From Vulcanimicrobiota bacterium (GTDB taxonomy: Bacteria > Vulcanimicrobiota > Vulcanimicrobiia > Eremiobacterales > Eremiobacteraceae), in contig JAFAKE010000018.1 in NCBI GenBank assembly GCA_019235715.1, positions 1-46,130 of the forward strand: a DNA stretch of 46,130 nt, given 5' to 3'. A program made the translations under genes and the position numbers. Positions within the stretch are counted from its first letter, which is position 1, and each line of letters starts with the position of its first letter. Of the stretch, positions 10,386-23,812 are shown piece by piece. The notes under the pieces were generated by a model that saw only the letters and a program-made list of their open reading frames with translations, ran no database searches and was not told where the DNA came from.

Positions 10386-10472
10386 ATGGCCGACCAGATC
10401 ATCGGACTCGTGCTCTCTCTGTTGGCGCTTTGCTATCTCACCTACGCGATGCTGCGTCCGGAGAAGTTCTAA
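10386..10472 (+). CDS. kdpF: potassium-transporting ATPase small subunit KdpF
   Basis: 28 residues, one membrane helix: MADQIIGLVLSLLALCYLTY then AMLRPEKF. The pattern GxxLxxxLxxYLxYAxxxPExF is that of KdpF, the lipid-like peptide that stabilises KdpFABC. It sits 1 base before kdpA. Confidence 0.88.
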   Translation: MADQIIGLVLSLLALCYLTYAMLRPEKF

Positions 10473-10473
10473 G

Positions 10474-12174
10474 ATGAACCTTTTCGGCTGGGCGCAAGCC
10501 GTCATCTTCCTCTTGCTCGTCCTGCTCGTGACGCGACCGCTTGGCGCCTACATGGCGCGTGTGTTCGAAGGCGAGCGCACCTGGTTCCAGCCGGTATTCG
10601 CGCCGCTCGAGCGCGCGTTCTACCGGCTATGCCGCATCGATCCCGCCACGGAGATGTCGGCTGCGTCCTACCTGCTCGCCACGCTGGCGTTCAGCTTGAT
10701 CGGACTCGTCTATCTCTACGCCTTGCTGCGCACGCAGAAGTGGCTGCCGCTGAACCCTCAGCACTTCGACAATCTGCCGGCCGACAGCGCCTGGAACGTC
10801 GCCGTCAGCTTCATGACCAACACGAACTGGCAGTTCTACTCCGGCGAGAGCACGATGAGCTATCTTTCGCAGATAGCCGGCCTTGCCTGGCATAACTTCG
10901 TGTCGGCAGCTGTCGGCATCACGATCGCGATCGCCGTCATCCGCGGCGTGACGCGCACCGACCGCACGACGGTCGGGAACTTCTGGGTCGACGTCACGCG
11001 CGCCACGCTCTACGTGCTCCTCCCTATCAGCATAGCCGGCTGTCTGCTCTTGGTATCGCAGGGCATCCCGCAAAACTTCCATGCCTATCAAGATGTCGTG
11101 TCGATCGAAGGCTTCAGGCAGACCATCACCGGCGGACCGATGGCGTCGCAAGAAGTCATCAAGGAGCTCGGCACCAACGGCGGCGGCTTTGTCAATGCCA
11201 ACTCCGCATCGCCCAACGAGAATCCGACGCCGCTCTCAAATCTGCTTGAGATGTTCTTGATCTTCTGCATCGGAGCGGGACTCACGTATACGTATGGCCG
11301 TTATGCGAAGGATCAGCGCCAGGGTTGGGCGTTGTTCGTGGCGATGGCGATCTTATTCGCCGCGGGCTTCACGGTCGCTTACGCATCCGAGAGCGCCGGC
11401 AATCCGTTGGTGCACGCGCTCGGCGTCAGCGGCGGCAATATGGAAGGCAAGGAGTGCCGCTTCGGAGTGGCGGCTTCATCACTGTTCGCGGCGGTCACGA
11501 CCGACACATCGTGCGGCGCTGTCAACGCGATGCATGACTCGTTCACCCCATTGGGCGGCCTCGTTCCGCTGGCGAACATGCAGCTCGGCGAAATCGTGTA
11601 CGGCGGCGTCGGCACCGGCCTCTACGGCATGATTCTTTTCGTGGTGCTGACGGTGTTCATCGCCGGGCTCATGGTTGGACGCACGCCCGAATATCTCGGC
11701 AAGAAGATCGAGCGCAGCCACGTGCAGTACGCGATTCTCGCGGCGCTGGTCTTGCCCGTGTTCGCGTTGATCCCGACCGCGATCTCGGTGCTCGTGCCTG
11801 CCGGAACCGCAACGCTGGGCAACGCCGGCGCGCACGGATTTTCCGAGCTGCTCTACGGCTTCACCTCGACGACCGAAAATAACGGCAGCGCGTTCGCCGG
11901 TCTTGGCGGCAACACGTATTTCAACATCCTGATGGGCGTCGTGATGCTGTGCGGGCGCTTTCTTTTCCTCATCCCGGCCGTGCTGCTCGCAGGATCGTTG
12001 GCGGGCAAGCCGCGCGCACCCGTCACCAGCGGCACGTTTCAGACGCATTCTCCCGTATTCGTCGGCCTGCTCATCGGCGTCATCATCATCGTCGGCGCGT
12101 TGACCTTCTTTCCGGCAGATGCGCTGGGTCCGATCGTCGAGCATTTGCAGATGCTGCACGGAAAGTCGTTCTAG
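10474..12174 (+). CDS. kdpA: potassium-transporting ATPase subunit KdpA
   Basis: 566 residues, the normal length, about ten membrane helices. Selectivity-filter-type repeats of KdpA are visible: TNTNWQFYSGE, TNGGGFVNANSA, GNMEGKECRFG and NNGSAFAGLGGNT. KdpA is the potassium-binding channel-like subunit of the high-affinity Kdp P-type ATPase in the inner membrane. Its stop is directly followed by the kdpB ATG (TAGATG). Confidence 0.97.
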   Translation: MNLFGWAQAVIFLLLVLLVTRPLGAYMARVFEGERTWFQPVFAPLERAFYRLCRIDPATEMSAASYLLATLAFSLIGLVYLYALLRTQKWLPLNPQHFDNLPADSAWNVAVSFMTNTNWQFYSGESTMSYLSQIAGLAWHNFVSAAVGITIAIAVIRGVTRTDRTTVGNFWVDVTRATLYVLLPISIAGCLLLVSQGIPQNFHAYQDVVSIEGFRQTITGGPMASQEVIKELGTNGGGFVNANSASPNENPTPLSNLLEMFLIFCIGAGLTYTYGRYAKDQRQGWALFVAMAILFAAGFTVAYASESAGNPLVHALGVSGGNMEGKECRFGVAASSLFAAVTTDTSCGAVNAMHDSFTPLGGLVPLANMQLGEIVYGGVGTGLYGMILFVVLTVFIAGLMVGRTPEYLGKKIERSHVQYAILAALVLPVFALIPTAISVLVPAGTATLGNAGAHGFSELLYGFTSTTENNGSAFAGLGGNTYFNILMGVVMLCGRFLFLIPAVLLAGSLAGKPRAPVTSGTFQTHSPVFVGLLIGVIIIVGALTFFPADALGPIVEHLQMLHGKSF

Positions 12175-14226
12175 ATGATCTCCGAACGACGGCTTGACCG
12201 CCGCCCGAAGGCGCGCTCGCTCTTCGATCGCGCGATCCTCTCGCGCGCGGTGATCGATGCGTTCCGCAAGCTCGACCCGCGCTGGCAGTTCCGCAATCCC
12301 GTGATGTTCGTCTGTGAGATCGGTGCGCTCGTCACGCTGCTGTTCTTTTTGCGCGACTTGCGCACGCACGGACCGGCCGGCTTCGACTTTGCCATCTCGG
12401 TCTGGCTGTGGTTCACGGTTCTGTTCGCGAACTTCGCCGAGGCCGTCGCCGAAGGACGAGGCAAGGCGCAAGCTGATTTCTTGCGGCGGACGAAATCCGA
12501 CACGAAGGCACGCCGCGTCGTCGCGGGGCGCGAAGAAGTCATCAGTTCGACCGAGCTGCGCAAGGGCGACGTCTTCCGCGTCGACGCCGGCGAGCTGATC
12601 GCGGCCGATGGCGACGTCATCGCAGGCGCCGCAACCGTTGACGAGTCGGCGATCACGGGCGAGTCGGCGCCCGTCATCCGCGAGGCCGGCGGCGACCGCA
12701 GCTCAGTCACCGGCGGCACGCGCGTGCTCTCCGATTCGATCCTCGTGCAAGTGACGGCGAATCCCGGCGAGGCGTTCCTCGACCGCATGATCTCGCTGGT
12801 CGAAGGCGCCAAGCGCCAGAAGACGCCGAACGAGATCGCGCTGTCGATCCTCATCTCGGGCCTCACCATCATCTTTTTGATCGCCGTCGCGACGCTCTCG
12901 CCGTACTCGATCTATGCGCACACGGCGCAGTCGGTCACCGTGCTCATCGCCTTGCTGGTCTGCCTCATCCCCACGACGATCGGCGGGCTGCTCTCGGCGA
13001 TCGGCATCGCGGGCATGGACCGCGTGCTGCAGCGCAACGTCCTCGCGATGAGCGGACGTGCCGTCGAGGCTTCGGGAGACGTCGATACGCTGCTCTTGGA
13101 CAAGACAGGGACGATCACGCTCGGCAACCGGCAGGCGACCGAGTTCTTGCCGGCGCCCGGCATCCGCATCGAAGACGTCGCGCGCGCAGCCTACCTGTCG
13201 TCGCTGTCCGATGAAACACCCGAAGGACGCTCGATCGTCGTGCTGTCCGAGCAGTACGGCGCAGCGCAAGGCGGCAAGCCGGCCGATGCGACCTTCGTGC
13301 CCTTCTCAGCATACACGCGCATGAGCGGCGTCGACGTGCCGGGCGCAGCGCCGATCCGCAAGGGTGCTCCAGACTCGATCCGCACGTGGGCGCGAGAACA
13401 GGGCGCAGCCAACGCGGACGTGCTGAGCGCGGAGGTGGATCGCATCGCGCGCGCCGGCGGCACCCCGCTGCTGCTCGCGCAGGGCGGCACCATTCTGGGC
13501 GCCATCCAGCTCAAAGACATTCTCAAACCCGCGATGCAACAACGCTTCGACCGCTTGCGCAAGATGGGCATTCGCACCATTATGATCACCGGCGACAATC
13601 CGCTCACCGCCGCGACCATCGCGCGCGAGTCGGGCGTCGACGATTTCCTCGCCGAAGCGACGCCGGAGACCAAGATGGCGTTGATCCGTCGCGAGCAAGA
13701 ATCCGGCAGGCTCGTCGCTATGACCGGCGACGGCACGAACGACGCGCCGGCGCTCGCGCAAGCCGACGTCGGCGTCGCCATGAATTCGGGCACGCAGGCC
13801 GCCAAAGAGGCCGCCAACATGGTCGACCTCGACTCCGATCCCACCAAGCTCATCGAGATCGTCGAGATCGGCAAGCAACTGCTCATGACGCGCGGCGCGC
13901 TGACGACGTTTTCGATCGCCAACGACGTCGCCAAGTATTTCGCGATTCTGCCAGCGATGTTCCGACTCGCGTACCCGGAAATCGATGCGCTCAACGTCAT
14001 GCATCTGTCGACCGCGCAAAGCGCGATCCTCTCGGCCGTCATCTTCAACGCGCTTATCATCATCGCGCTGATCCCGCTCGCCTTGCGCGGCGTCAAGTAC
14101 CGTCCGGTCGGCGCGAATATCGTGCTCCGCGACAACGTGCTTTGGTACGGCATCGGCGGCGTCATCGTACCATTCATCGGCATCAAACTGATCGACGCGC
14201 TCCTAACCGCGTTGCACCTGACGTAA
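12175..14226 (+). CDS. kdpB: potassium-transporting ATPase ATP-binding subunit KdpB
   Basis: 683 residues, P-type ATPase. The actuator motif is ITGES, the phosphorylation site [11 protein letters not shown], the nucleotide region ends in [15 protein letters not shown], and the hinge is [18 protein letters not shown]. Membrane helices include [18 protein letters not shown], the KdpB signature near the ion path. ATP hydrolysis drives uptake through KdpA. All key residues appear intact. Confidence 0.97.
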
Positions 14227-14235
14227 GGACCCGGC

Positions 14236-14841
14236 ATGAACGCTATCGACCTCAAAGACAACACGCTGCGACATCTGCGCATAGCGCTCGTGTATACGAT
14301 CGTCAGCGTGATCGCGTTCGGACTCGTCTATCCTTTCCTGATGACCGGCATGGCCATGCTGATCTTCCCGCGTCAAGCCAACGGCTCGATCGTCTTCATT
14401 GGCGGAAAGCCGATCGCGTCGGCGCTGATCGGTCAGTTGTGGACGAAACCGCAATACTTCCATGGCCGGCCTTCGGCGGCCGGCAAAGGCTACGATCCGA
14501 CGTCCACCGGCGGCACAAACCTGGCCCCGACCTCCAAGAAGCTCGTCGATACGACGCGTCAGACGATCGCCGCATTGCGCAAAGAGAATCCGGATGCGAC
14601 GCTTCCTATTCCGATGGACCTCGTCACGTCGAGCGGCAGCGGCATCGATCCCGATATCAGTCCGGAGGCCGCACACTACCAAGCGCCGCGCGTCGCTCGT
14701 GCGCGCGGCATGACCACGGCCAGCGTCGACGCGCTGATCGACCGGCACGTGCAGCCGCGAACCTTCGGGATGTTCGGCGAGCCGCGCGTCAACGTGCTGG
14801 AGCTCAATCTGGCGCTGGATGCCCAAAAGCCACGAACATGA
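14236..14841 (+). CDS. kdpC: potassium-transporting ATPase KdpC subunit
   Basis: 201 residues: a single N-terminal helix (ALVYTIVSVIAFGLVYPFLM), then the KdpC periplasmic domain with GSIVFIGGKPIASALIGQ, YFHGRPSA, VTSSGSGIDPDISPEAA and the C-terminal FGEPRVNVLELNLALD. Normal length. Its TGA overlaps the ATG of the following beta-barrel gene (ATGA). Confidence 0.96.
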   Translation: MNAIDLKDNTLRHLRIALVYTIVSVIAFGLVYPFLMTGMAMLIFPRQANGSIVFIGGKPIASALIGQLWTKPQYFHGRPSAAGKGYDPTSTGGTNLAPTSKKLVDTTRQTIAALRKENPDATLPIPMDLVTSSGSGIDPDISPEAAHYQAPRVARARGMTTASVDALIDRHVQPRTFGMFGEPRVNVLELNLALDAQKPRT

Positions 14842-15701
14842 TCCGCATATCATCGATAGCGCTCGCCGCTTTCGTTCTGTGCGCGGCGGGAGCACTTTGC
14901 GCCCCGGCGCTCGCGGATCCGACGCCTAACCCGTCGCCGTCGCCGTCGCCGACGCCAAGCGGCGTCTCCGATCCGTGCACCTCGATCCTTGCGATCGTGA
15001 CGCGACCGACTGTGACGACCGACGTGTGCACCGTGCGCGAAGGCCATTTGCTCGTCGAGAACGGGTACACAAACACGACGACGACAGGTCCCGGCGGCGG
15101 CAATACCGTGGCTTATCCGCAATCCTTCGTGCGCATCGGTTCGAATATTCCGCGCATTGAGATCGACTGGACCCCGCCGGGCTACAACAAGACATCGCTC
15201 GGGGGTGCAGTCGTCAGCGGTGCGAGCGACATGGCGTTCGGCGCGAAGTGGGAAGCTGGGTATTCAGCCAACGCCCTGTGGGGCGCCAACGCTTTCGTCA
15301 GCGTGCCGAGCGGCGATCCGGCGTTCAGCGCGGGCGGCACGCAGTACGTCGCAAACCTCAACTGGGGATACAGTTTCAACTCCGAGATCTCGGCGGCCGG
15401 CACGCTGGGCTTCAATTGGCTCACCGCGTACGACGCGAACCATACCCTGCAGCACTTTTCTTCCATTATACCGTCGGTAGAATTCACGGCGGGCTTGCCG
15501 GACAACTCGGAGGCCTTCGTCGAGTACGCCTACTTCAGTCACGCCGGATTTGGCCTCCCTGGCAAAAGCCTGATCGACGCCGGGCTCATCCACGATTTCG
15601 GTCCGCACCTCCAAGCCGACATCGAATACGGATATTCGCCAACCGCCATCAACGGTCAAAAGCAGCACTACGCCGGTTTCGGCCTATCGTTCATGTATTA
15701 G
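14838..15701 (+). CDS. predicted outer-membrane beta-barrel protein in the kdp operon
   Basis: 287 residues from ATG 14838 (overlapping the kdpC stop). Signal peptide with core LAAFVLCAAGALCAPALA, then a Pro-Ser linker (TPNPSPSPSPTPSG), then alternating strands ending in an aromatic residue (YAGFGLSFMY), the usual outer-membrane barrel C-terminus. It resembles the MetA-pathway/transporter barrel group; I cannot name a substrate. Translational coupling to kdpC suggests a porin accessory to potassium uptake, but that is inference. Its end overlaps the end of the convergent KdpD-like gene by 11 bases. Confidence 0.75.
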   Translation: MIRISSIALAAFVLCAAGALCAPALADPTPNPSPSPSPTPSGVSDPCTSILAIVTRPTVTTDVCTVREGHLLVENGYTNTTTTGPGGGNTVAYPQSFVRIGSNIPRIEIDWTPPGYNKTSLGGAVVSGASDMAFGAKWEAGYSANALWGANAFVSVPSGDPAFSAGGTQYVANLNWGYSFNSEISAAGTLGFNWLTAYDANHTLQHFSSIIPSVEFTAGLPDNSEAFVEYAYFSHAGFGLPGKSLIDAGLIHDFGPHLQADIEYGYSPTAINGQKQHYAGFGLSFMY

Positions 15702-17898
15702 ACGGGCTGCCGTTAGGCGCGGGCGGTTGCAACACAAGCAGCTCGTGGGCGCCTGCCTCAAGGGTGCGGCGCGCAAACGTAGGACCGCGCGGCCAGTGTG
15801 GGGTTGCGCGTGCGCCTTCCAGCGCGAGCAGCGCGCCGCGCTCGCGTGCGAGCGCGACGAGGCTCTTTGCTGCGTCCGCGGCGCTCGCATAAAGCCAGTC
15901 GGCTTGGACTGCTTCTGCAGCCGTTTGCAACGCGTTGAGGACGTCGGGCGGCGTCACGCGGCCCTTCTGCTGGATATGCGCGACGGTGTACTGGGCATCG
16001 AAACGCGCGCGCAGCTTCGCACCGCGGTAGATGAGGTTGACATCACGTGCTCTCGGCCCGACGCCGAGCAGCAGAGCGGCGACGGGCGAACGACGCGGTT
16101 CCCCAGCGCTCGTACGCACCGTTTCGCGCAATGCCAACTCGCGCAGCGCCGCGAGATTCTCGGTGCGGAAGAAATTTGACAGCGACGCCTCGACGCGATT
16201 GCTCGGATAGATGAAGCCGGCACGCAGTCGTTCGCGCAAGATCTCGGGCGACACGTCGATCAAGATGAGGTCGTCCGCCATGTCGAGGATCCAATCAGGC
16301 AGCGTCTCGCGCACGGTGACGCCCGTGAGACGCATGACCGAATCCCCTAATCCTTCGAGATGCTGGATGTTGAGCGTCGTCAGCACGCTAATGCCCGCTC
16401 CCTGCAGCGCGAAGACGTCCATGTAACGCTTCGCTGCAGCGCTGCCGGGGGCATTGGTGTGCGCGAGTTCGTCCACCAGCGCGACTTGAGGATGACGCGC
16501 GATGATCGCGTCGCGATCCATCTCTTCGTATGTGATGCCTCCTGCGAGCGTGACCCTGCGCGGCACAACTTCAAGCCCTTCGAGTTTGCGCGCAGTCTCG
16601 GTGCGGCCGTGCGTCTCGATGTAACCGACCACGACGTCTATTCCCGCATCTTTGAGCTGGTGTCCGCGGTCGAGCATCGCATACGTCTTGCCGCTGCCGG
16701 CGGCCGAGCCGAGGTAGATCGTCAGCCGTCCATAAGCCTGGCGCAACGGATTTTCGCCGGCAGCGCTTTGTGCGGGCGTTTCGGCGGCGGCCGCGCTTTG
16801 GCTCAGCTTGCCGTCGGTGACGAGGATATCGCGATCGATGCCGCGGCTCAGCACGCTGCGCGCAAGCTCTCCATAAGGCAGCGCGATGAGCGCGCCGGTC
16901 AGCGCGTCGAGACGCAGCAGCGACCCGTCGCCGACGGGCCACGGGACGCTCTTGCCGCCGCTCTTGGCGACCGCCGCTTCGCAGTTCTCGGCGCTGACAT
17001 CCGGGGCACACGCCACGTCGACCGCGAGATCGAAAACAGACGCGAGCGACGCAACGCGCTTCAGATACGCGCTCGCGTCTGCGCGATCCGTGAGCAGCGC
17101 GACCGCGGTCGACGCGCGCGCGGGCGCCACCGCGGGAATGGTGAACTCGTCGACCAAGCGCAGCATCAGTTCGCGCATGGAATTCAAGGCCGCAAGTCTG
17201 AACGGTCCCGCGAGCGCCCGTTCGATGTCTTCGCCGTGAACGATCTTGCCTTCGCGTAAACGAGCTTGCAGCTGCTCGGGCGACACGTCGACCGCGACCA
17301 GCTGATCGACGTGCTTGAGGAATGACATCGGGATGATCTCGCGCACGGGAAAGCCGATGATGCGTTCGGCAGCCGGCGCGAGCGACTCGATATGCTGCAC
17401 GTTCACCGCACCGAGCACGCCGATGCCGTGCTTCACCAGATCTTCGGCGTCTTGCCAGCGCTTGCCGTGACGGCCGCCGGGCAAGTTCGCATGCGCGAGC
17501 TCGTCGAGCACGACGATGTCCGGTTTCTCCGCGAGCGCCGCAGCGAAATCAAAATCCTCGAAACTCGAGTTCGCAATGCTTACCGTGCGCGGCGGGATCT
17601 GCGGCAGGGGCGCGGCCAGTGCGGCAAGGTCTGGACGCCCCTTCGTGTCGAGCGCGCCGATGAAGACGCGCCGGCCGCTCTTGCGCAGTGCGAGCGCATC
17701 CTCGAGCATGCGGCGCGTCTTGCCGGCGCCGGGCGCAAAGCCGAGGTATACGCGTAAACGCGGACCAGCGCCGATGTCCGACAAGAGCGCTTGCGCGGCC
17801 TTAGCCCGCGTGTCTATCGCGTCCACGCGACCAACCTTCGCGCCCGTTTCAACGTCCCCATGCGCATGAAACGTTTTGCGGCGGCGCGAACCAGTCAT
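15691..17898 (-). CDS. tandem KdpD-sensor-domain protein, lacks kinase
   Basis: 735 residues containing two complete KdpD cytosolic sensor modules. Module 1: Walker A GFAPGAGKT at 53-61, LDELAHANLPG near 131, NVQHIESL near 166, DVSPEQLQARLREGKI at 204-219, then a USP-like segment (about 262-360). Module 2: GSAAGSGKT at 397-405, VDELAHTNAPG near 475, NIQHLEGL near 510, DVSPEILRERLRAGFIY at 548-564, then a second USP-like segment (about 602-727). There are no membrane helices and no HisKA or ATPase domain. Full-length KdpD has one such module in front of its membrane/kinase half; short KdpD proteins with only the N-domain are known in cyanobacteria and Deinococcus. The ATG 17898 lies next to the start of the divergent kinase. 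Confidence 0.92.
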   Translation of the reverse strand: MTGSRRRKTFHAHGDVETGAKVGRVDAIDTRAKAAQALLSDIGAGPRLRVYLGFAPGAGKTRRMLEDALALRKSGRRVFIGALDTKGRPDLAALAAPLPQIPPRTVSIANSSFEDFDFAAALAEKPDIVVLDELAHANLPGGRHGKRWQDAEDLVKHGIGVLGAVNVQHIESLAPAAERIIGFPVREIIPMSFLKHVDQLVAVDVSPEQLQARLREGKIVHGEDIERALAGPFRLAALNSMRELMLRLVDEFTIPAVAPARASTAVALLTDRADASAYLKRVASLASVFDLAVDVACAPDVSAENCEAAVAKSGGKSVPWPVGDGSLLRLDALTGALIALPYGELARSVLSRGIDRDILVTDGKLSQSAAAAETPAQSAAGENPLRQAYGRLTIYLGSAAGSGKTYAMLDRGHQLKDAGIDVVVGYIETHGRTETARKLEGLEVVPRRVTLAGGITYEEMDRDAIIARHPQVALVDELAHTNAPGSAAAKRYMDVFALQGAGISVLTTLNIQHLEGLGDSVMRLTGVTVRETLPDWILDMADDLILIDVSPEILRERLRAGFIYPSNRVEASLSNFFRTENLAALRELALRETVRTSAGEPRRSPVAALLLGVGPRARDVNLIYRGAKLRARFDAQYTVAHIQQKGRVTPPDVLNALQTAAEAVQADWLYASAADAAKSLVALARERGALLALEGARATPHWPRGPTFARRTLEAGAHELLVLQPPAPNGSPSNT

Positions 17899-17899
17899 C

Positions 17900-19489
17900 G
17901 TGCCGCGTTCTTGGATCGTCTACGCGTGCGTCGGGCTCGTGCTGGCGGCCTGGCTCATCGACATGTTCACACCGCAGCTATTCGTCGCGGCGATCCTGTT
18001 CGACGCGCCCGTCGCATTAACGGCGCTGGCCCTCAACCGGCGCTTCACGTGGACGATCGTCGGACTGTGCCTCGTCTTCAATGCGATCGCCGGCTGGTAC
18101 AACGGATTGCACGAGGGCGTATACTATCCGATCGCGACATTGGATCGCGTGCTCGCCGGTCTTTCGACCGTGTTGGTCGGCGGTCTGGCCGTTGCCACGC
18201 AAGGCGCCGCGCGCTTCGCCGGTGAGTCTGCCGAGCGCGACGCGGTCGCCAAACGCGCAAACGCGCTGCGCCGCGCGGGCGAGCGCATGCGCGAATCGCT
18301 CAGCCTGGAGCTGGTCTGGCGCGAGGTGGTACGGCAAGCAGTCGCGCTGTTGGACAGCGATGCCGCGACGTTGTTCCCTTGCGACAACGGACGTCTTTCC
18401 GAAAACTCGTTCGTCGCCATGCACGACAGCGATGACGTCGAAGCGCGCAACGAACGTCCCGGACCGGGCGTGTGGACTGCGCTGCAAAAGGCGCTGGCCG
18501 AGCGCGGTATCGTCTATCTAAACCAAGCCGACGCGCTGGCGCGCTTCACGCTTGGGAACATCGGCGCGCAGAGCGCCCTTATCGCGCCGCTCGGCTCAGG
18601 ACCCGACGCGGTCGCCGTGCTGCTCGTCGAGTGGCGCCAGCACGAAAGACAGTTCGATCGCGAACTTGAGAATCTCGTCCAAGCGTTCGCTGACCAAAGC
18701 GCGCGCGCGATCGAGCAGGCAAAGCTCGTCGAAGCGCTCGCGGCGACGAACGACCAGTTGCAATCCGCCAATCGCGAGCTGCTCGAGCGCAACCAAGTCA
18801 TTCGAGACCTCGTGTATGCGCTGTCGCACGATCTGCGCACTCCGCTCATGGCCGGCAGCATGACGATGCGTCAAGCGCTGGCCGGAGCTTACGGGCGGCT
18901 CCCCGCCGAATATGTCGAAGTGCTGCGCCGTTCGCTGCAGTCGAATGAAGAGCTCGAACGGCTCGCGCAGACGCTGCTCCTGGTCGCACGCTATGAGTCA
19001 CGCGAAGAGTCGAAGCAACGGCGGCCGGCCGACCTGGGGGCGCTCGCGCGCTCTGTGGTCGCCGAACTCGAGTCGCTGTGGCGTTCAAAGCACATCGAGT
19101 GCCGCGTCGAGGGCGAAGGCGTGTTCGGACTCGTCGACGAGAGCGAGATGCGGCGCGCGCTGATCAACCTCATCGCGAATGCGGTCACGTGGACTCCTGA
19201 AGGAGGCAAGATCCTCGTTCGCGTCAGCCAATCCGACGGCACGGCGCAAGTCGACGTTGAGGACGACGGTTTTGGCGTGCCCGCGCAGGAGCGCTCGGCG
19301 CTGTTCCAACGGTTCTTCGGCGACGGCATGGCGCGCCGCGGGGGCGGCACGGGTCTAGGCTTATACATCGTGCGCCGCATCGCCGAAAGCCACGGCGGAA
19401 GCGTGACGTACCAACCGCGCCAACCTCGCGGCAGCGTCTTCACCCTTCGTGTGCCGAGCGCCGTGCCCGCCGAGGCGCCGCATGCCTAG
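17900..19489 (+). CDS. membrane histidine kinase (4TM-GAF-HisKA-HATPase), probable KdpD kinase half
   Basis: 529 residues from GTG 17900; the frame also allows TTG 17876, which would overlap the divergent gene. About four N-terminal membrane segments (WIVYACVGLVLAAWL through LSTVLVGGLAVA) are followed by a GAF-like domain (about 115-265), a coiled segment, an H-box ALSHDLRTPLMA and a Bergerat ATPase (NLIANAVTWTPEGG, DDGFGVP, GGGTGLGLYIVRRI). This is the order of the C-terminal half of KdpD, but the membrane part is not obviously the KdpD type. It is divergent from the tandem KdpD-domain protein and overlaps the response regulator by 8 bases. The signal is probably potassium or turgor, by context. 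Confidence 0.85.
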   Translation: MPRSWIVYACVGLVLAAWLIDMFTPQLFVAAILFDAPVALTALALNRRFTWTIVGLCLVFNAIAGWYNGLHEGVYYPIATLDRVLAGLSTVLVGGLAVATQGAARFAGESAERDAVAKRANALRRAGERMRESLSLELVWREVVRQAVALLDSDAATLFPCDNGRLSENSFVAMHDSDDVEARNERPGPGVWTALQKALAERGIVYLNQADALARFTLGNIGAQSALIAPLGSGPDAVAVLLVEWRQHERQFDRELENLVQAFADQSARAIEQAKLVEALAATNDQLQSANRELLERNQVIRDLVYALSHDLRTPLMAGSMTMRQALAGAYGRLPAEYVEVLRRSLQSNEELERLAQTLLLVARYESREESKQRRPADLGALARSVVAELESLWRSKHIECRVEGEGVFGLVDESEMRRALINLIANAVTWTPEGGKILVRVSQSDGTAQVDVEDDGFGVPAQERSALFQRFFGDGMARRGGGTGLGLYIVRRIAESHGGSVTYQPRQPRGSVFTLRVPSAVPAEAPHA

Positions 19490-20123
19490 GACGAAGGTGC
19501 TTATCGTCGAGGACCACGCCTTGACGAGGACCGGCTTGCGCACCGCGCTCGATCTCAACCAGACGCTCGAAGTGGTCGGGGAAGCAAGCGATGGGGAGTC
19601 AGGACTCGACGCGGCGTTGCGCCTGCATCCGGACGTCGCCGTCATCGATATCGGACTGCCGGGCATCGATGGCATTGAGCTGACCAGGCGCATCCGACAC
19701 GAGTTGCCCAAGACGAAAGTGCTCATCCTCACGATGCACGACATGGATGACGAGGTGATCGGTGCGCTCGCAGCCGGCGCGGATGCGTACTGCCTCAAGG
19801 CGGCCGATCCCGAGCGCATCGTCGACGCCGTGAAAACCGCGGCCGCGGGCGGGGCCTATTTCGATCCCGGCATCGCGCACGTCGTCCTGCGCGCGTTCAA
19901 CCGCCCGGAAGTCGCCGAAACGACCGCGCGATCTCCGCTCACGGCGCGCGAGACGCAGATCCTCGGCCTGATCGCCGGCGGCACGAGCAATGCGGATATC
20001 GCCGACCGGCTCTCAATAGGGTTGGGCACGGTCAAGGGCCATATCCGCGATATTATGGAGAAGCTGTCCGCCGCAGACCGCACGCACGCGGCGGTCATCG
20101 CGCTGCGCCGCGGCTTGATCTGA
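19482..20123 (+). CDS. NarL/FixJ-family response regulator
   Basis: 213 residues from ATG 19482. The receiver domain has IVEDHALTRTG, the phosphate acceptor Asp56 in VAVIDIGLPG, and the conserved Lys in YCLKAADPE. The C-terminal LuxR-type helix-turn-helix is LTARETQILGLIAGGTSNADIADRLSIGLGTVKGHI (read in two parts). KdpE, the usual partner, is an OmpR-type winged-helix regulator, so this is a different output domain for a kdp-linked kinase. It is co-translated with the kinase. The target promoter is presumably that of the kdp operon. Confidence 0.92.
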   Translation: MPRTKVLIVEDHALTRTGLRTALDLNQTLEVVGEASDGESGLDAALRLHPDVAVIDIGLPGIDGIELTRRIRHELPKTKVLILTMHDMDDEVIGALAAGADAYCLKAADPERIVDAVKTAAAGGAYFDPGIAHVVLRAFNRPEVAETTARSPLTARETQILGLIAGGTSNADIADRLSIGLGTVKGHIRDIMEKLSAADRTHAAVIALRRGLI

Positions 20124-20668: not shown

Positions 20669-20768
20669 GGCACGGCGCGGCTACACCTTCGCCGAAGTGC
20701 TCACCGTCTCGGACTTTTCGTTCGCGCTGCCCGGTACGATCGTCGTCTCGACGTTCGGCGCATACTAG
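20649..20768 (+). pseudogene. truncated prepilin: leader and start of helix joined to a short tail
   Basis: From TTG 20649, with GAGGTGGAG just upstream, the frame reads MSRNRSRARRGYTFAEVLTV and then SDFSFALPGTIVVSTFGAY before TAG. A basic leader followed by G-YTFAEVL is the type IV prepilin cleavage and methylation motif (G-[FY]-T-x-x-E, Glu at position 5). The normal hydrophobic helix and globular domain are missing: about 39 residues instead of 130 or more. An internal in-frame deletion of a minor pilin gene is the simplest reading. The stop overlaps the stop of the convergent pentapeptide gene. Confidence 0.55.
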
Positions 20769-23700
20769 AGCGCTTTTCGGTATCCGAGCAGCCGGCGCAA
20801 CACGCCGGTGAATGTCAGAATGCCGAGTGGGATCAGGACCAGACCCAACGCGCGTTCGCCGCTGGCGACTTGCGGCGCCGTGAACGGCGTGCCCGGAATC
20901 GCGCAGCTGGAAATGCGCCATTGCGTCAGCGGTGCTGGATCCAACCACGCATATGCGGCCGCGCCGAGCAGCGCCGCGTCACCCGCTGGTGCGCGCGCAT
21001 CGCAGGGATAGGGGATCGTGACTTCGTCGCTGGGCGGCGGCACCGTCGTACCCGGCAGCATGAAGAGCGCTGCCGCGAGGATCAGCGGAGCAAGAAGCCA
21101 CCCGAGCATGCGCCATGGGCGCACGCCGTACCCGGTGATTGCGCGCAGCGCGCGGTCGCCTGCGAGGCGCAGCAGATCGGCCCAAAACGCCGCTGACCAG
21201 ACCGGCGAGCGCAACGGATGTACCCGATTCCCCTCGAGCTCGCGCCGCAGATAGAACGCGTCTGCAGCCTTGCGGCGCTGGCTGCGCGGCGGCGCGGTGG
21301 CGTGCGCCTTCTCAGCGCTCTTGGCCGGGAATGCTGCGTCATCTGGTGCGCGCGAGGCTGACTGCAAGATGACGAAATGGCCGCCGCGCAGGTCGAGCGT
21401 GATGCCGCGATCGCGCGAGCGCGGCGCGGCGGGCGCCTGTGCCAGCTCGCCGTTCGAGCGCGCGCGTTGCCGCGGCGCAGGCGCACCTGCGGCCGCGCGT
21501 TCACCGAGCTCGAGCGCGCCGAATTGCATCCAGCGAAGATCGATCGGCGCTGCAAATGTCGCGTCCGATAGCTGGATCTCGCGCCCTGCGCGGGCGCCGA
21601 TGAAGCGCGCCTCGGCGGCAAACGACGCGCGCTCGAGACAGAGGTCGGTGCCGACATCCATGCCGTCGAAGACGGCGCGTTGCCCGAACGTCGAGTCCGA
21701 CAAATCGGCGCGGCCTCCGGCCCGGACGGCGTCGAAGCGTGCATCGCCATCGAAGAGCGCGTGCGTCAACGTAAGGTCGCCGCGCACGGTCACGCCGTCG
21801 AAGTCAGCGCGTTCGCCGAAGCGCGCGCCGCGTGCGTCGAACTGGGCGCCGAAGAGCGAGCCCGAAAATTCCGCACGGCGTGCAAAGCGTGCGCCGGCAA
21901 AACCGGCACTGCCCGCGATGCCGATGCGATGGAAGATCGCGGCAGCGGAAAATATCGCATTCGGCGCGCTCAGGCCGCCCGCAGCCGTGACATCGTTGCA
22001 GCGCACGTCACCGTCGAACGCCGCTTTGGCGAAGTCGATCGCCGCTTTGACCTCCAGTCCGTCGAACAGCGCGGGCCCGCTCACTTTTGCCCCGGCGAAC
22101 AGGAGACCGGATGTGACGCGGCTGGACCGCAGGTCGGCCACGGCAGCGAAGGTCGCGCCGCTGCAATCGATCGCGCCGCCCGAATTGAGCGCGCCGAGTT
22201 GCGCTTGCCCGGCGAAACGCGCGCCTGCCAGCATGACACGGCCTGCGCAGCGAGCGACGCTCAGATCGACGTCGCCGCCGAACGCGACGCCGCCGGCCTT
22301 CAGCGCGCCACCAATGGCAGCGGCGCGCAGCGAAAAGGCGCGCTGAAGTTCAGCGCGCTCTAGGCGCAGGTCGCCGCCGATCTTGCTTCCTGCCAGGCGC
22401 AGATCGGACGCAAAACGCGCGCCCTCGGCATTGAAATCGCCTTTGATGGAAAGATTGGTCGCCGCGAGGTCGCCTTCGAACACGGCCGCGCTGAGATCTG
22501 CGCCGGCGCCGCTTTCCACATCGCTCAGATCGGCGCCGCGCGCGAACGTCGCATGCGATGCGTCCAACGCGCCGGCGCGCAGCGCGTGGCAGTTCGCGCC
22601 TGCGCGAAACGCCGTCCACGCAAAGCACGCCGCGCCGTCCGCGCGCGCATCGATGAACTCGGCATCAGCCTCGAAGACTGCGCGCGTAAAGTCAAGCCTT
22701 CCAAAGCGCGCGTTGGCGAAGTTCGCCGTACGCCGGAACGCCGCGTGCGTGAAGTCGGCGATTTGGGCGGCGCGCGCATCCGCAAAGTCTGCGCTGTCCT
22801 CAAATGTCGCAGATTCGAACTCAAATGCTCCGCCGCCATCCGCGGCGCGCATCCCAATCGTTCCTTTGAACACCGCGTCTTCGAAATTGATGTCGCCGCC
22901 GGCGACCAGGCGCGTGAGATCGACGTCGCGGGCGAAGGACGACTGCATGCACAACAGGCGGCGCGCGATGCGCGCATCGGTGAGAACGAGCCGTCCCTGG
23001 AACGAGATGTTGGAAAACGCCGCTTCGCCCAAGGCCGCAGCGTCCAGCGCGACGTCAGCGGCGAGCGACGCTGCGGTCGCGACCAGCGCCTCGGCGACGC
23101 GCACGCCGCGCAGGCGCAACTCGCCTTTGGAAGACGCTTCGCTGAGATCGAACGTGCCGCCGATCTGCGCGCGCTCGAGCGCAAGGCCTTGCCCAAAGGC
23201 AGTATGTTTCGCGCTGACGTTGCGGATCGCCGACAGCTCGCGAATGATGAAGTCGGACTCGATGACGCTGGCGTCGAGTACGACGTCTGCGCCGACTTGA
23301 AGCTCCTCCAGGCGCAGACCGCGCTGGAATGTCGCATTCGACGCGAGCAGGGAAGCGCCGACCCGCGCGCTCTTCCCCGTGAACGGGCCATCGAGGCGGA
23401 CGCCGTCCAGCACAAGATTGCCGCCGACGGCGACGCCGCTCACGTCGACCTCACCGCGTATCCGAGCGCCGGCGAACGAGACATCGCTCTCGGCGCGCAT
23501 GCTGGTCAAGCGCACCCCGCTCTCCAGACGGCAGCCGTCGAAGCGAACCGCTTGTAGGAAACGCGCGTCGCCCAGATCGAGGCTCGAAAGCGTCGAATTC
23601 GTCAGCGAGAACGGCGCAGGTATGTAACGCCCTTCGAGCTGCAGCGGCCCTGCGACGATCGCGTTGTCAACGTCGACGGCCAACCCAAGGCGTACCGCTT

Positions 23701-23812
23701 CGATGATCCACTCAGCGCGGACGACGCGTGCACCATCAGGCCCCTCGGGGGGAAGATGAAGCGCGCTGCCGGCGAGTATCGCCTGCAGATTGGCGTCGTC
23801 GACGACGTCCAT
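20765..23812 (-). CDS. very long pentapeptide-repeat membrane protein
   Basis: 1015 residues. From about 75 to 740 it is almost entirely degenerate pentapeptide repeats of the A(D/N)LxF type, for example DARFLQAVRFDGC, ADFTHAAFRRTANFANARF and GDARFDAVRAGGRADLSDSTF, which fold as a right-handed quadrilateral helix. A low-complexity linker follows (about 745-830), then FYLRRELEGNR, a GYGVRPWRMLGW segment and two C-terminal membrane helices (LLAPLILAAALFML and LGLVLIPLGILTFTGVL). The FYxRxE...GYGxRPWR block is shared with other membrane-anchored pentapeptide proteins. Function unknown. ATG 23812 overlaps the ribH stop (ATGA), so it ends the riboflavin operon, although no link to flavins is evident. 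Confidence 0.87.
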   Translation of the reverse strand: MDVVDDANLQAILAGSALHLPPEGPDGARVVRAEWIIEAVRLGLAVDVDNAIVAGPLQLEGRYIPAPFSLTNSTLSSLDLGDARFLQAVRFDGCRLESGVRLTSMRAESDVSFAGARIRGEVDVSGVAVGGNLVLDGVRLDGPFTGKSARVGASLLASNATFQRGLRLEELQVGADVVLDASVIESDFIIRELSAIRNVSAKHTAFGQGLALERAQIGGTFDLSEASSKGELRLRGVRVAEALVATAASLAADVALDAAALGEAAFSNISFQGRLVLTDARIARRLLCMQSSFARDVDLTRLVAGGDINFEDAVFKGTIGMRAADGGGAFEFESATFEDSADFADARAAQIADFTHAAFRRTANFANARFGRLDFTRAVFEADAEFIDARADGAACFAWTAFRAGANCHALRAGALDASHATFARGADLSDVESGAGADLSAAVFEGDLAATNLSIKGDFNAEGARFASDLRLAGSKIGGDLRLERAELQRAFSLRAAAIGGALKAGGVAFGGDVDLSVARCAGRVMLAGARFAGQAQLGALNSGGAIDCSGATFAAVADLRSSRVTSGLLFAGAKVSGPALFDGLEVKAAIDFAKAAFDGDVRCNDVTAAGGLSAPNAIFSAAAIFHRIGIAGSAGFAGARFARRAEFSGSLFGAQFDARGARFGERADFDGVTVRGDLTLTHALFDGDARFDAVRAGGRADLSDSTFGQRAVFDGMDVGTDLCLERASFAAEARFIGARAGREIQLSDATFAAPIDLRWMQFGALELGERAAAGAPAPRQRARSNGELAQAPAAPRSRDRGITLDLRGGHFVILQSASRAPDDAAFPAKSAEKAHATAPPRSQRRKAADAFYLRRELEGNRVHPLRSPVWSAAFWADLLRLAGDRALRAITGYGVRPWRMLGWLLAPLILAAALFMLPGTTVPPPSDEVTIPYPCDARAPAGDAALLGAAAYAWLDPAPLTQWRISSCAIPGTPFTAPQVASGERALGLVLIPLGILTFTGVLRRLLGYRKAL

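What the first reader, a model, noticed from the sequence alone, without database searches (positions are those of the whole stretch)
15691..19489. KdpD split into a kinase-less protein with two complete sensor modules and a separate, divergent histidine kinase
Seen: residues 53-61 and 397-405 are two Walker A motifs, each followed by the full KdpD set (DELAH, NxQHxE/L, DVSPExLxxRLxxG) and a USP-like segment. The protein has no membrane or kinase domain. A 4TM-GAF-HisKA-HATPase kinase begins one base away on the other strand. Known: KdpD normally carries one sensor module fused to this kinase half, and short KdpD proteins exist. Inference: an internal duplication gave an intramolecular pair of ATPase/c-di-AMP-type sensor modules that acts on the kinase in trans.
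Basis: partly seen in the sequence, partly recalled or inferred. Interest (0 to 1): 0.75.

Follow-up and report, generated by a model that had tools for sequence, protein, structure and literature searches.

The report
Doubled KdpD beside potassium pump
A bacterium's potassium-pump locus carries a doubled version of the pump-control protein KdpD, which probably switches the pump off by phosphorylating it; the doubled form is found across the organism's whole class and also in Bacilli and some cyanobacteria, so it is a recurrent but seemingly undescribed variant of a known regulator.

Summary
In detail: 15691-17898 (-) encodes KdpD-Usp-KdpD-Usp without membrane or histidine-kinase domain, beside kdpFABC and divergent from a TM-GAF-HisKA-HATPase kinase plus response regulator.

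(1) The neighbouring kinase is not KdpD's detached half: its membrane region does not match KdpD's, other kinase families match it better, and its regulator is NarL-type, not KdpE-like.
(2) The architecture is not unique. It is class-wide here and occurs in Bacilli (32 of 71 sampled KdpD-positive genomes) and four cyanobacteria, usually right behind kdpC or kdpB.
(3) KdpD domains are atypical serine kinases that shut off KdpB (Silberberg 2024). Module 2 keeps every catalytic residue, KdpB keeps the target serine, and the tandem gene co-occurs with the pump. Where pump and kinase are lost, catalytic residues decay (4 of 7 proteins, against 0 of 47 linked).
(4) c-di-AMP is doubtful: no diadenylate cyclase was found in this genome or its nearest relatives, and the published binding motif is absent.

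Best explanation: a duplicated KdpB serine kinase with an intact C-terminal catalytic module and a diverged but constrained N-terminal module, separate from the two-component system. New variant of a known kind.

The parts
10386..10472 (+). kdpF-like small membrane peptide (28 aa, MADQIIGLVLSLLALCYLTYAMLRPEKF)
   Evidence: read from the ORF translation; KdpF by resemblance from memory, not tested
10474..12174 (+). kdpA
   Evidence: PF03814 E 8e-236
12175..14226 (+). kdpB; Ser164 of TGES, the expected target serine, at 12664-12666
   Evidence: TIGR01497 1037 bits; TGES position
14236..14841 (+). kdpC
   Evidence: PF02669 E 3e-69
14838..15701 (+). outer-membrane-protein-like gene, ATG overlapping the end of kdpC by 4 nt; recurs in other Kdp islands of the class
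   Evidence: ORF translation; no Pfam or NCBIfam match; blastp hits in class islands
15691..17898 (-). tandem KdpD-Usp-KdpD-Usp protein, 735 aa (true start perhaps GTG at residue 25)
   Evidence: two PF02702 stretches; AF2 model
17152..17760 (-). KdpD module 1 (residues 47-249): diverged; keeps GKT, DE and R190, has Arg for the adenine aromatic
16732..17151 (-). Usp-like segment 1 and linker
   Evidence: position between modules; AF2 strands and helices; alignment
16120..16731 (-). KdpD module 2 (residues 390-593): complete serine-kinase set
15694..16119 (-). Usp-like segment 2; no c-di-AMP motif
17900..19489 (+). TM-GAF-HisKA-HATPase_c histidine kinase, class-conserved; phospho-accepting His in YALSHDLRTPL at about 18827-18829
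   Evidence: not kin to KdpD's membrane half
19482..20123 (+). NarL/LuxR-type response regulator overlapping the end of the kinase gene
   Evidence: PF00072 and PF00196; NarL best NCBIfam match; conserved in 44 loci

Best explanation
The gene encodes a duplicated, stand-alone KdpD/Usp atypical serine kinase of the Kdp pump. Module 2 is the catalytic unit: it binds ATP and, when K+ is plentiful, phosphorylates KdpB Ser164 (TGES) and arrests the pump. Module 1 is a diverged but still constrained partner in the same chain that probably binds nucleotide differently and pairs with, gates or positions module 2. The Usp-like segments are the input domains; their ligand is unknown and probably not c-di-AMP in this organism. 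The divergent kinase and NarL-type regulator form a separate two-component system that probably controls transcription of the island. Shown: architecture, conservation, co-occurrence, catalytic residues, target serine, decay in orphans. Inferred: KdpB as substrate, the division of labour between modules, the signal, and the role of the two-component system.
For: Published: the KdpD domain phosphorylates KdpB S162, needing Walker A, D109/E110 and W39/R190, and a short KdpD/Usp chain of Deinococcus geothermalis does the same (PMC11018627). Module 2 keeps this whole set. KdpB has Ser164 in TGES, a motif kept in 54 of 55 KdpB ORFs of the loci. In class genomes at least 90% complete (tallied by hand): 54 with tandem KdpD and KdpA, 5 tandem only, 0 KdpA only, 13 neither; Fisher p 1e-10. 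No pump-linked class protein has lost a core catalytic residue in either module (one frame cut at its N-terminus left out), while 4 of 7 unlinked ones have. Tandem KdpDs of Bacilli and early cyanobacteria also lie directly behind kdpC or kdpB, so across lineages the shared partner is the pump. There, as here, module 2 stays catalytic and it is module 1 that departs, in the Bacillus/Paenibacillus-type group mostly by loss of the Walker B Glu.
Against: Pump, kinase and regulator are absent together in the orphan genomes, so the decay test alone does not separate pump from kinase as partner. Three orphans (G015, G055, G088) keep an intact core set without a pump. The sample of orphans is small. 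No biochemistry exists on any tandem KdpD that I found. The AF2 monomer model gives no reliable view of how the modules contact each other (pTM 0.67, no PAE seen).
Confidence: 0.6

Rival explanations
1. The tandem protein is a cytoplasmic sensor that acts on the divergent histidine kinase in trans, replacing KdpD's missing input half and controlling transcription.
For: Divergent adjacency of tandem gene and kinase-regulator pair conserved across the class; all lost together in orphans; in E. coli the N-terminal domain affects KdpD signalling (PMC2714519, abstract only).
Against: The kinase is not kin to KdpD's half; tandem KdpDs in Bacilli and cyanobacteria follow the pump genes instead, though only short stretches were held there; the published activity of a KdpD/Usp chain is on KdpB.
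Confidence: 0.15
2. The tandem protein has a second or different target in K+ homeostasis (the TrkA pair or the Na_H_Exchanger protein of the same island) besides KdpB.
For: In G055, G088, G130 and the second G086 copy it lies directly behind two TrkA genes without pump or kinase, and in G055, G088 and G086 beside the exchanger; three orphans keep intact catalytic residues; pairwise dN/dS stays at 0.13-0.23 in orphan-sister pairs.
Against: Four of seven orphans have lost core residues, and dN/dS of pairs includes the time before pump loss; the TrkA genes are equally present in pump-bearing islands, so adjacency may be a relic of deletion; no TrkH found in any of the 11 genomes tested.
Confidence: 0.12
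3. Module 1 is a mere relic of duplication without function, and the protein works as an ordinary single-module KdpD/Usp kinase.
For: Module 1 diverges faster (mean within-class identity 59% against 67%) and has lost several family-invariant residues.
Against: Its own residues (R40, K63, L68, R65, D109, E110, R190, W59) are near invariant over more than 50 proteins and its core is intact in all linked ones; it is retained class-wide.
Confidence: 0.08

Closest known systems
Short KdpD/Usp atypical serine kinase (Deinococcus geothermalis KdpD, PMC11018627; NCBIfam NF038185 KdpD-like non-kinase potassium sensor)
   Same: KdpD and Usp domains only, no TM or kinase half, encoded with the pump, complete catalytic set in module 2
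   Different: two modules in one chain; convergent with kdpABC instead of downstream in the operon; no detectable diadenylate cyclase in the genome, whereas DgKdpD is stimulated by c-di-AMP
Split kdp regions with a KdpD/Usp chain and a separate TM/GAF/kinase chain (described in PMC11018627, with Alicyclobacillus, Anabaena and D. radiodurans as examples)
   Same: serine-kinase chain and histidine-kinase chain on separate polypeptides in one region
   Different: the kinase's membrane region is not KdpD-like, its regulator is NarL-type, and the serine-kinase chain is doubled
Tandem KdpDs of Bacilli and early-branching cyanobacteria (found here)
   Same: KdpD-Usp-KdpD-Usp with a complete C-terminal module and, in most, a departing N-terminal one
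   Different: placed directly behind kdpC or kdpB; trees place their duplications apart from this class's; in Bacillus/Paenibacillus-type proteins module 1 mostly lost the Walker B Glu and kept the aromatic, the reverse of this class
Escherichia coli KdpD
   Same: module homology: module 2 is 50% and module 1 is 42% identical
   Different: one module fused to a 4TM-GAF-HisKA-HATPase half

Membership tests
KdpD domain (atypical serine kinase) | PF02702 match above the gathering score | tested here: met
   two stretches, 280.6 and 225.1 bits against a cut-off of 26.1
KdpD domain (atypical serine kinase) | catalytic set (G-X5-GKT, aromatic at W39, D109/E110, R190) in module 2 | tested here: met
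   GSAAGSGKTY, DELAH, R190
KdpD domain (atypical serine kinase) | the same catalytic set in module 1 | tested here: not met
   aromatic at 39 replaced by Arg; GKT, D109/E110 and R190 kept
KdpD domain (atypical serine kinase) | phosphorylates KdpB | not testable with these tools
   needs purified proteins; target Ser164 is present
c-di-AMP-binding KdpD-Usp | (A/G/C)XSXSX2N(Y/F) motif of PMC8214093 | tested here: not met
   absent from both Usp segments; the motif was defined in Firmicutes and the D. radiodurans KdpD aligned here lacks it too, so binding is not excluded
c-di-AMP-binding KdpD-Usp | diadenylate cyclase in the genome | tested here: not met
   PF02457: no candidate in the own genome, no match in G015, G016, G021, G022; 131 of 149 phylum genomes match
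Kinase half of KdpD (for the divergent kinase) | KdpD-type 4TM region and closest kinship to KdpD kinases | tested here: not met
   no DUF4118 match; TM against TM hhalign probability 0.8%; KdpD ranks 11th in NCBIfam
KdpE (for the response regulator) | OmpR-type output domain | tested here: not met
   GerE/LuxR-type output domain; NarL best match
Kdp pump operon | kdpA, kdpB, kdpC | tested here: met
   PF03814, TIGR01497, PF02669

The most novel reading that the evidence does not exclude
Tandem KdpDs are a recurrently evolved two-module serine kinase in which an N-terminal module, a pseudokinase or altered nucleotide sensor, gates a C-terminal kinase within one chain; and in this class the unit also acts on a K+ transport target other than KdpB, which would explain why it outlives the pump beside TrkA and exchanger genes.
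Probability: 0.18. Interest if true: 0.65.

Novelty: new variant of a known kind. Interest (0 to 1): 0.42.

Why it matters
The post-translational arm of Kdp regulation (KdpD as a serine kinase of KdpB) was described only in 2024, and tandem forms are not discussed in the main text of that paper; its supplements could not be opened. If tandem forms are as common as seen here (a whole class, nearly half of the sampled KdpD-positive Bacilli, some cyanobacteria), a frequent form of this regulator has been overlooked. The repeated pattern, in which the N-terminal copy changes and the C-terminal copy stays catalytic, suggests a pseudokinase-kinase style of control that can be tested directly in vitro. 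Genomes with the tandem KdpD but no diadenylate cyclase give a natural test of whether c-di-AMP is really the signal for short KdpDs.

Tried and rejected
Using a locus as centre for the genome search failed; genome handles obtained were used instead. Two batches failed because a member did not translate openly; the first was rerun with other members, the second replaced by a script. One S. meliloti outgroup was dropped because the frame I guessed held stops. Rejected: chance double match (E-values and model); assembly artefact (class-wide, many contigs); KdpD split by a break (the kinase is of another family); tandem architecture unique to this lineage; a riboswitch or other known RNA at the locus (no Rfam match). 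A first tree with the very divergent L100 modules gave an uncertain placement of module 1, and without them modules 1 and 2 group at only 62/50, so internal duplication is compatible but not proven for this class. The dN/dS comparison of orphan and linked pairs (0.13-0.23 against 0.06-0.17) was not decisive. A first attempt to hand in this report failed for missing fields.

Full report
OBSERVATION. The ORF at 15691-17898 (-) is 735 aa and matches PF02702 (KdpD) twice, at 17152-17760 and 16120-16731, with Usp-like segments after each module. The AlphaFold2 model is confident over both halves (mean pLDDT 87) and matches the solved KdpD N-terminal domain (2r8r, TM 0.95) and the S. aureus KdpD Usp domain with c-di-AMP (7ji4, TM 0.81). 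No membrane or kinase domain is present. The divergent gene encodes a GAF-HisKA-HATPase_c kinase followed by a NarL/LuxR-type response regulator. Upstream and convergent lie kdpF (by eye), kdpA, kdpB, kdpC and an outer-membrane-protein-like gene. The one-base gap between start codons is as written, but the N-terminal 43 residues of the tandem protein have pLDDT below 50 and a GTG at residue 25 is a plausible start.

EXTENT IN THE CLASS. Searching 149 genomes of the phylum, nearly every KdpD-bearing genome of the window's class has two PF02702 matches about 1 kb apart in one frame of 700-800 aa. The order kdpABC > < tandem KdpD, kinase > regulator > recurs, in either orientation, in about 45 of 54 class loci; most exceptions are contig ends. 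From, tallied by hand for class genomes at least 90% complete: 54 have tandem KdpD and KdpA, 5 tandem only, 0 KdpA only, 13 neither (Fisher p 1e-10). Organism names are not shown by these tools; a class of Eremiobacterota/Vulcanimicrobiota is my guess from genome sizes and habitat-typical gene content, not a result.

EXTENT OUTSIDE. A genome-collection scan found tandem KdpDs in Bacillus methanolicus, four Paenibacillus species and Candidatus Cyanaurora vandensis. In a sample of 200 Bacilli, 71 have KdpD above the cut-off and I count 32 with two matches in one frame; two more (G337, G348) have two adjacent KdpD/Usp genes whose products fall with the N- and C-terminal modules respectively, a fusion or fission intermediate. 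In 146 cyanobacterial genomes four are tandem. Two other classes of the phylum have divergent tandem forms (L011, L100). No plasmid record holds one place covering 80% of the query. Trees place the class modules 1 and 2 as two clades with 100/99-100 support, so the tandem form predates the class radiation; whether the two are sisters is open (62/50). The Bacillus/Paenibacillus-type N-terminal modules group with Bacilli C-terminal modules (98/89, 88/69), and a second Bacilli group has its own pair, which points to several independent duplications with moderate support.

RESIDUES. Using the set shown to matter in E. coli KdpD (Walker A, W39/R190, D109/E110; PMC11018627): module 2 of the class keeps all of it, with Tyr at 39 in the window. 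Module 1 keeps G34, G36, K37, T38, D109, E110 and R190 but replaces the aromatic at 39 by Arg (75%) or His (18%), G30 mostly by Ala, H63 by Lys and T68 by Leu, and has its own near-invariant residues (R40, W59, W125). Module 2 in turn varies at Q126 and around 120-122. In most Bacillus/Paenibacillus-type tandem proteins module 1 has lost the Walker B Glu (Gly, Asp, His or Gln) and keeps the aromatic, with module 2 intact. The second Bacilli group keeps the core set in both modules. So the N-terminal copy tends to depart, by different residues, while the C-terminal copy stays complete.

PARTNER. Published work shows that the KdpD domain phosphorylates KdpB at S162 of the TGES motif to stop the pump, that some species keep only KdpD/Usp chains, and that separate kinase chains are a known arrangement. 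KdpB here has TGES with Ser164; 54 of 55 KdpB ORFs in the loci keep TGES. Tandem KdpDs of Bacilli and cyanobacteria lie directly behind kdpC or kdpB. Seven class proteins are not linked to a pump (G015, G055, G086 second copy, G088, G093, G116, G130; G116 and G130 with the limits of a short contig and 74% completeness). In the five that are at least 93% complete and lack KdpA, no ortholog of the kinase was found, only scraps beside the tandem gene in G015 and a 46-residue piece in G093, and no KdpB beyond about 33% identity. Four of these seven proteins have lost a core residue in at least one module (G086 second copy, G093, G116, G130) against none of the pump-linked class proteins, leaving out one frame cut by a contig end and the non-class L100. 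This supports selection tied to the pump-kinase block but cannot tell pump from kinase. G055, G088 and G015 keep the core.

THE KINASE. Its membrane region does not align with that of KdpD (hhalign probability 0.8%), its GAF region does so as GAF domains do (95.8%), and KdpD ranks eleventh among curated kinase families matching it. With a NarL-type regulator the pair is best read as a separate two-component system, probably for transcription of the island; that is inference.

SIGNAL. The diadenylate cyclase family is found in 131 of 149 phylum genomes but not in the own genome (no candidate at all), G015, G016, G021 or G022. Neither Usp segment has the Firmicutes c-di-AMP motif. The motif is also missing from the D. 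radiodurans sequence aligned here, so motif absence alone is weak; the missing cyclase is the stronger point. c-di-AMP is therefore an unlikely signal in this organism, although it may serve relatives.

VERDICT. A real, conserved, duplicated KdpD/Usp chain, most likely the serine kinase that shuts off KdpB, with an unexplained second module. It is a new variant of a known kind rather than a new system.

Noticed in passing
L068 6783-11563, L209 8457-13098, L066 6995-11574, L213 2703-6275; compare L075 4502-18046: In several class genomes the island reads TrkA, TrkA, tandem KdpD, exchanger, i.e. the island of related genomes without the kinase-regulator and kdpCBA blocks, with tandem KdpD left in place (exchanger not seen in L213).
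   Followed up: partly
own genome G000, G015, G016, G021, G022: Diadenylate cyclase (PF02457) not found in the window's genus and two related genera, although nearly all other members of the class have it.
   Followed up: partly
window 14838-15701: Outer-membrane-protein-like gene overlapping the end of kdpC by 4 nt; relatives occur in many Kdp islands of the class but no family model matches it. A possible outer-membrane partner of the pump.
   Followed up: no
11 class genomes tested: No TrkH (PF02386) was found although paired TrkA genes sit in many of the class islands; what the TrkA pair regulates is unknown.
   Followed up: no
L205 1283-3671 and L206 1081-3423: Bacilli with two adjacent single-module KdpD/Usp genes behind kdpC, whose products pair with the halves of tandem proteins in the tree.
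   Followed up: partly
window 20765-23812 (-): A 1015-aa protein of pentapeptide-like repeats with a C-terminal membrane segment.
   Followed up: no
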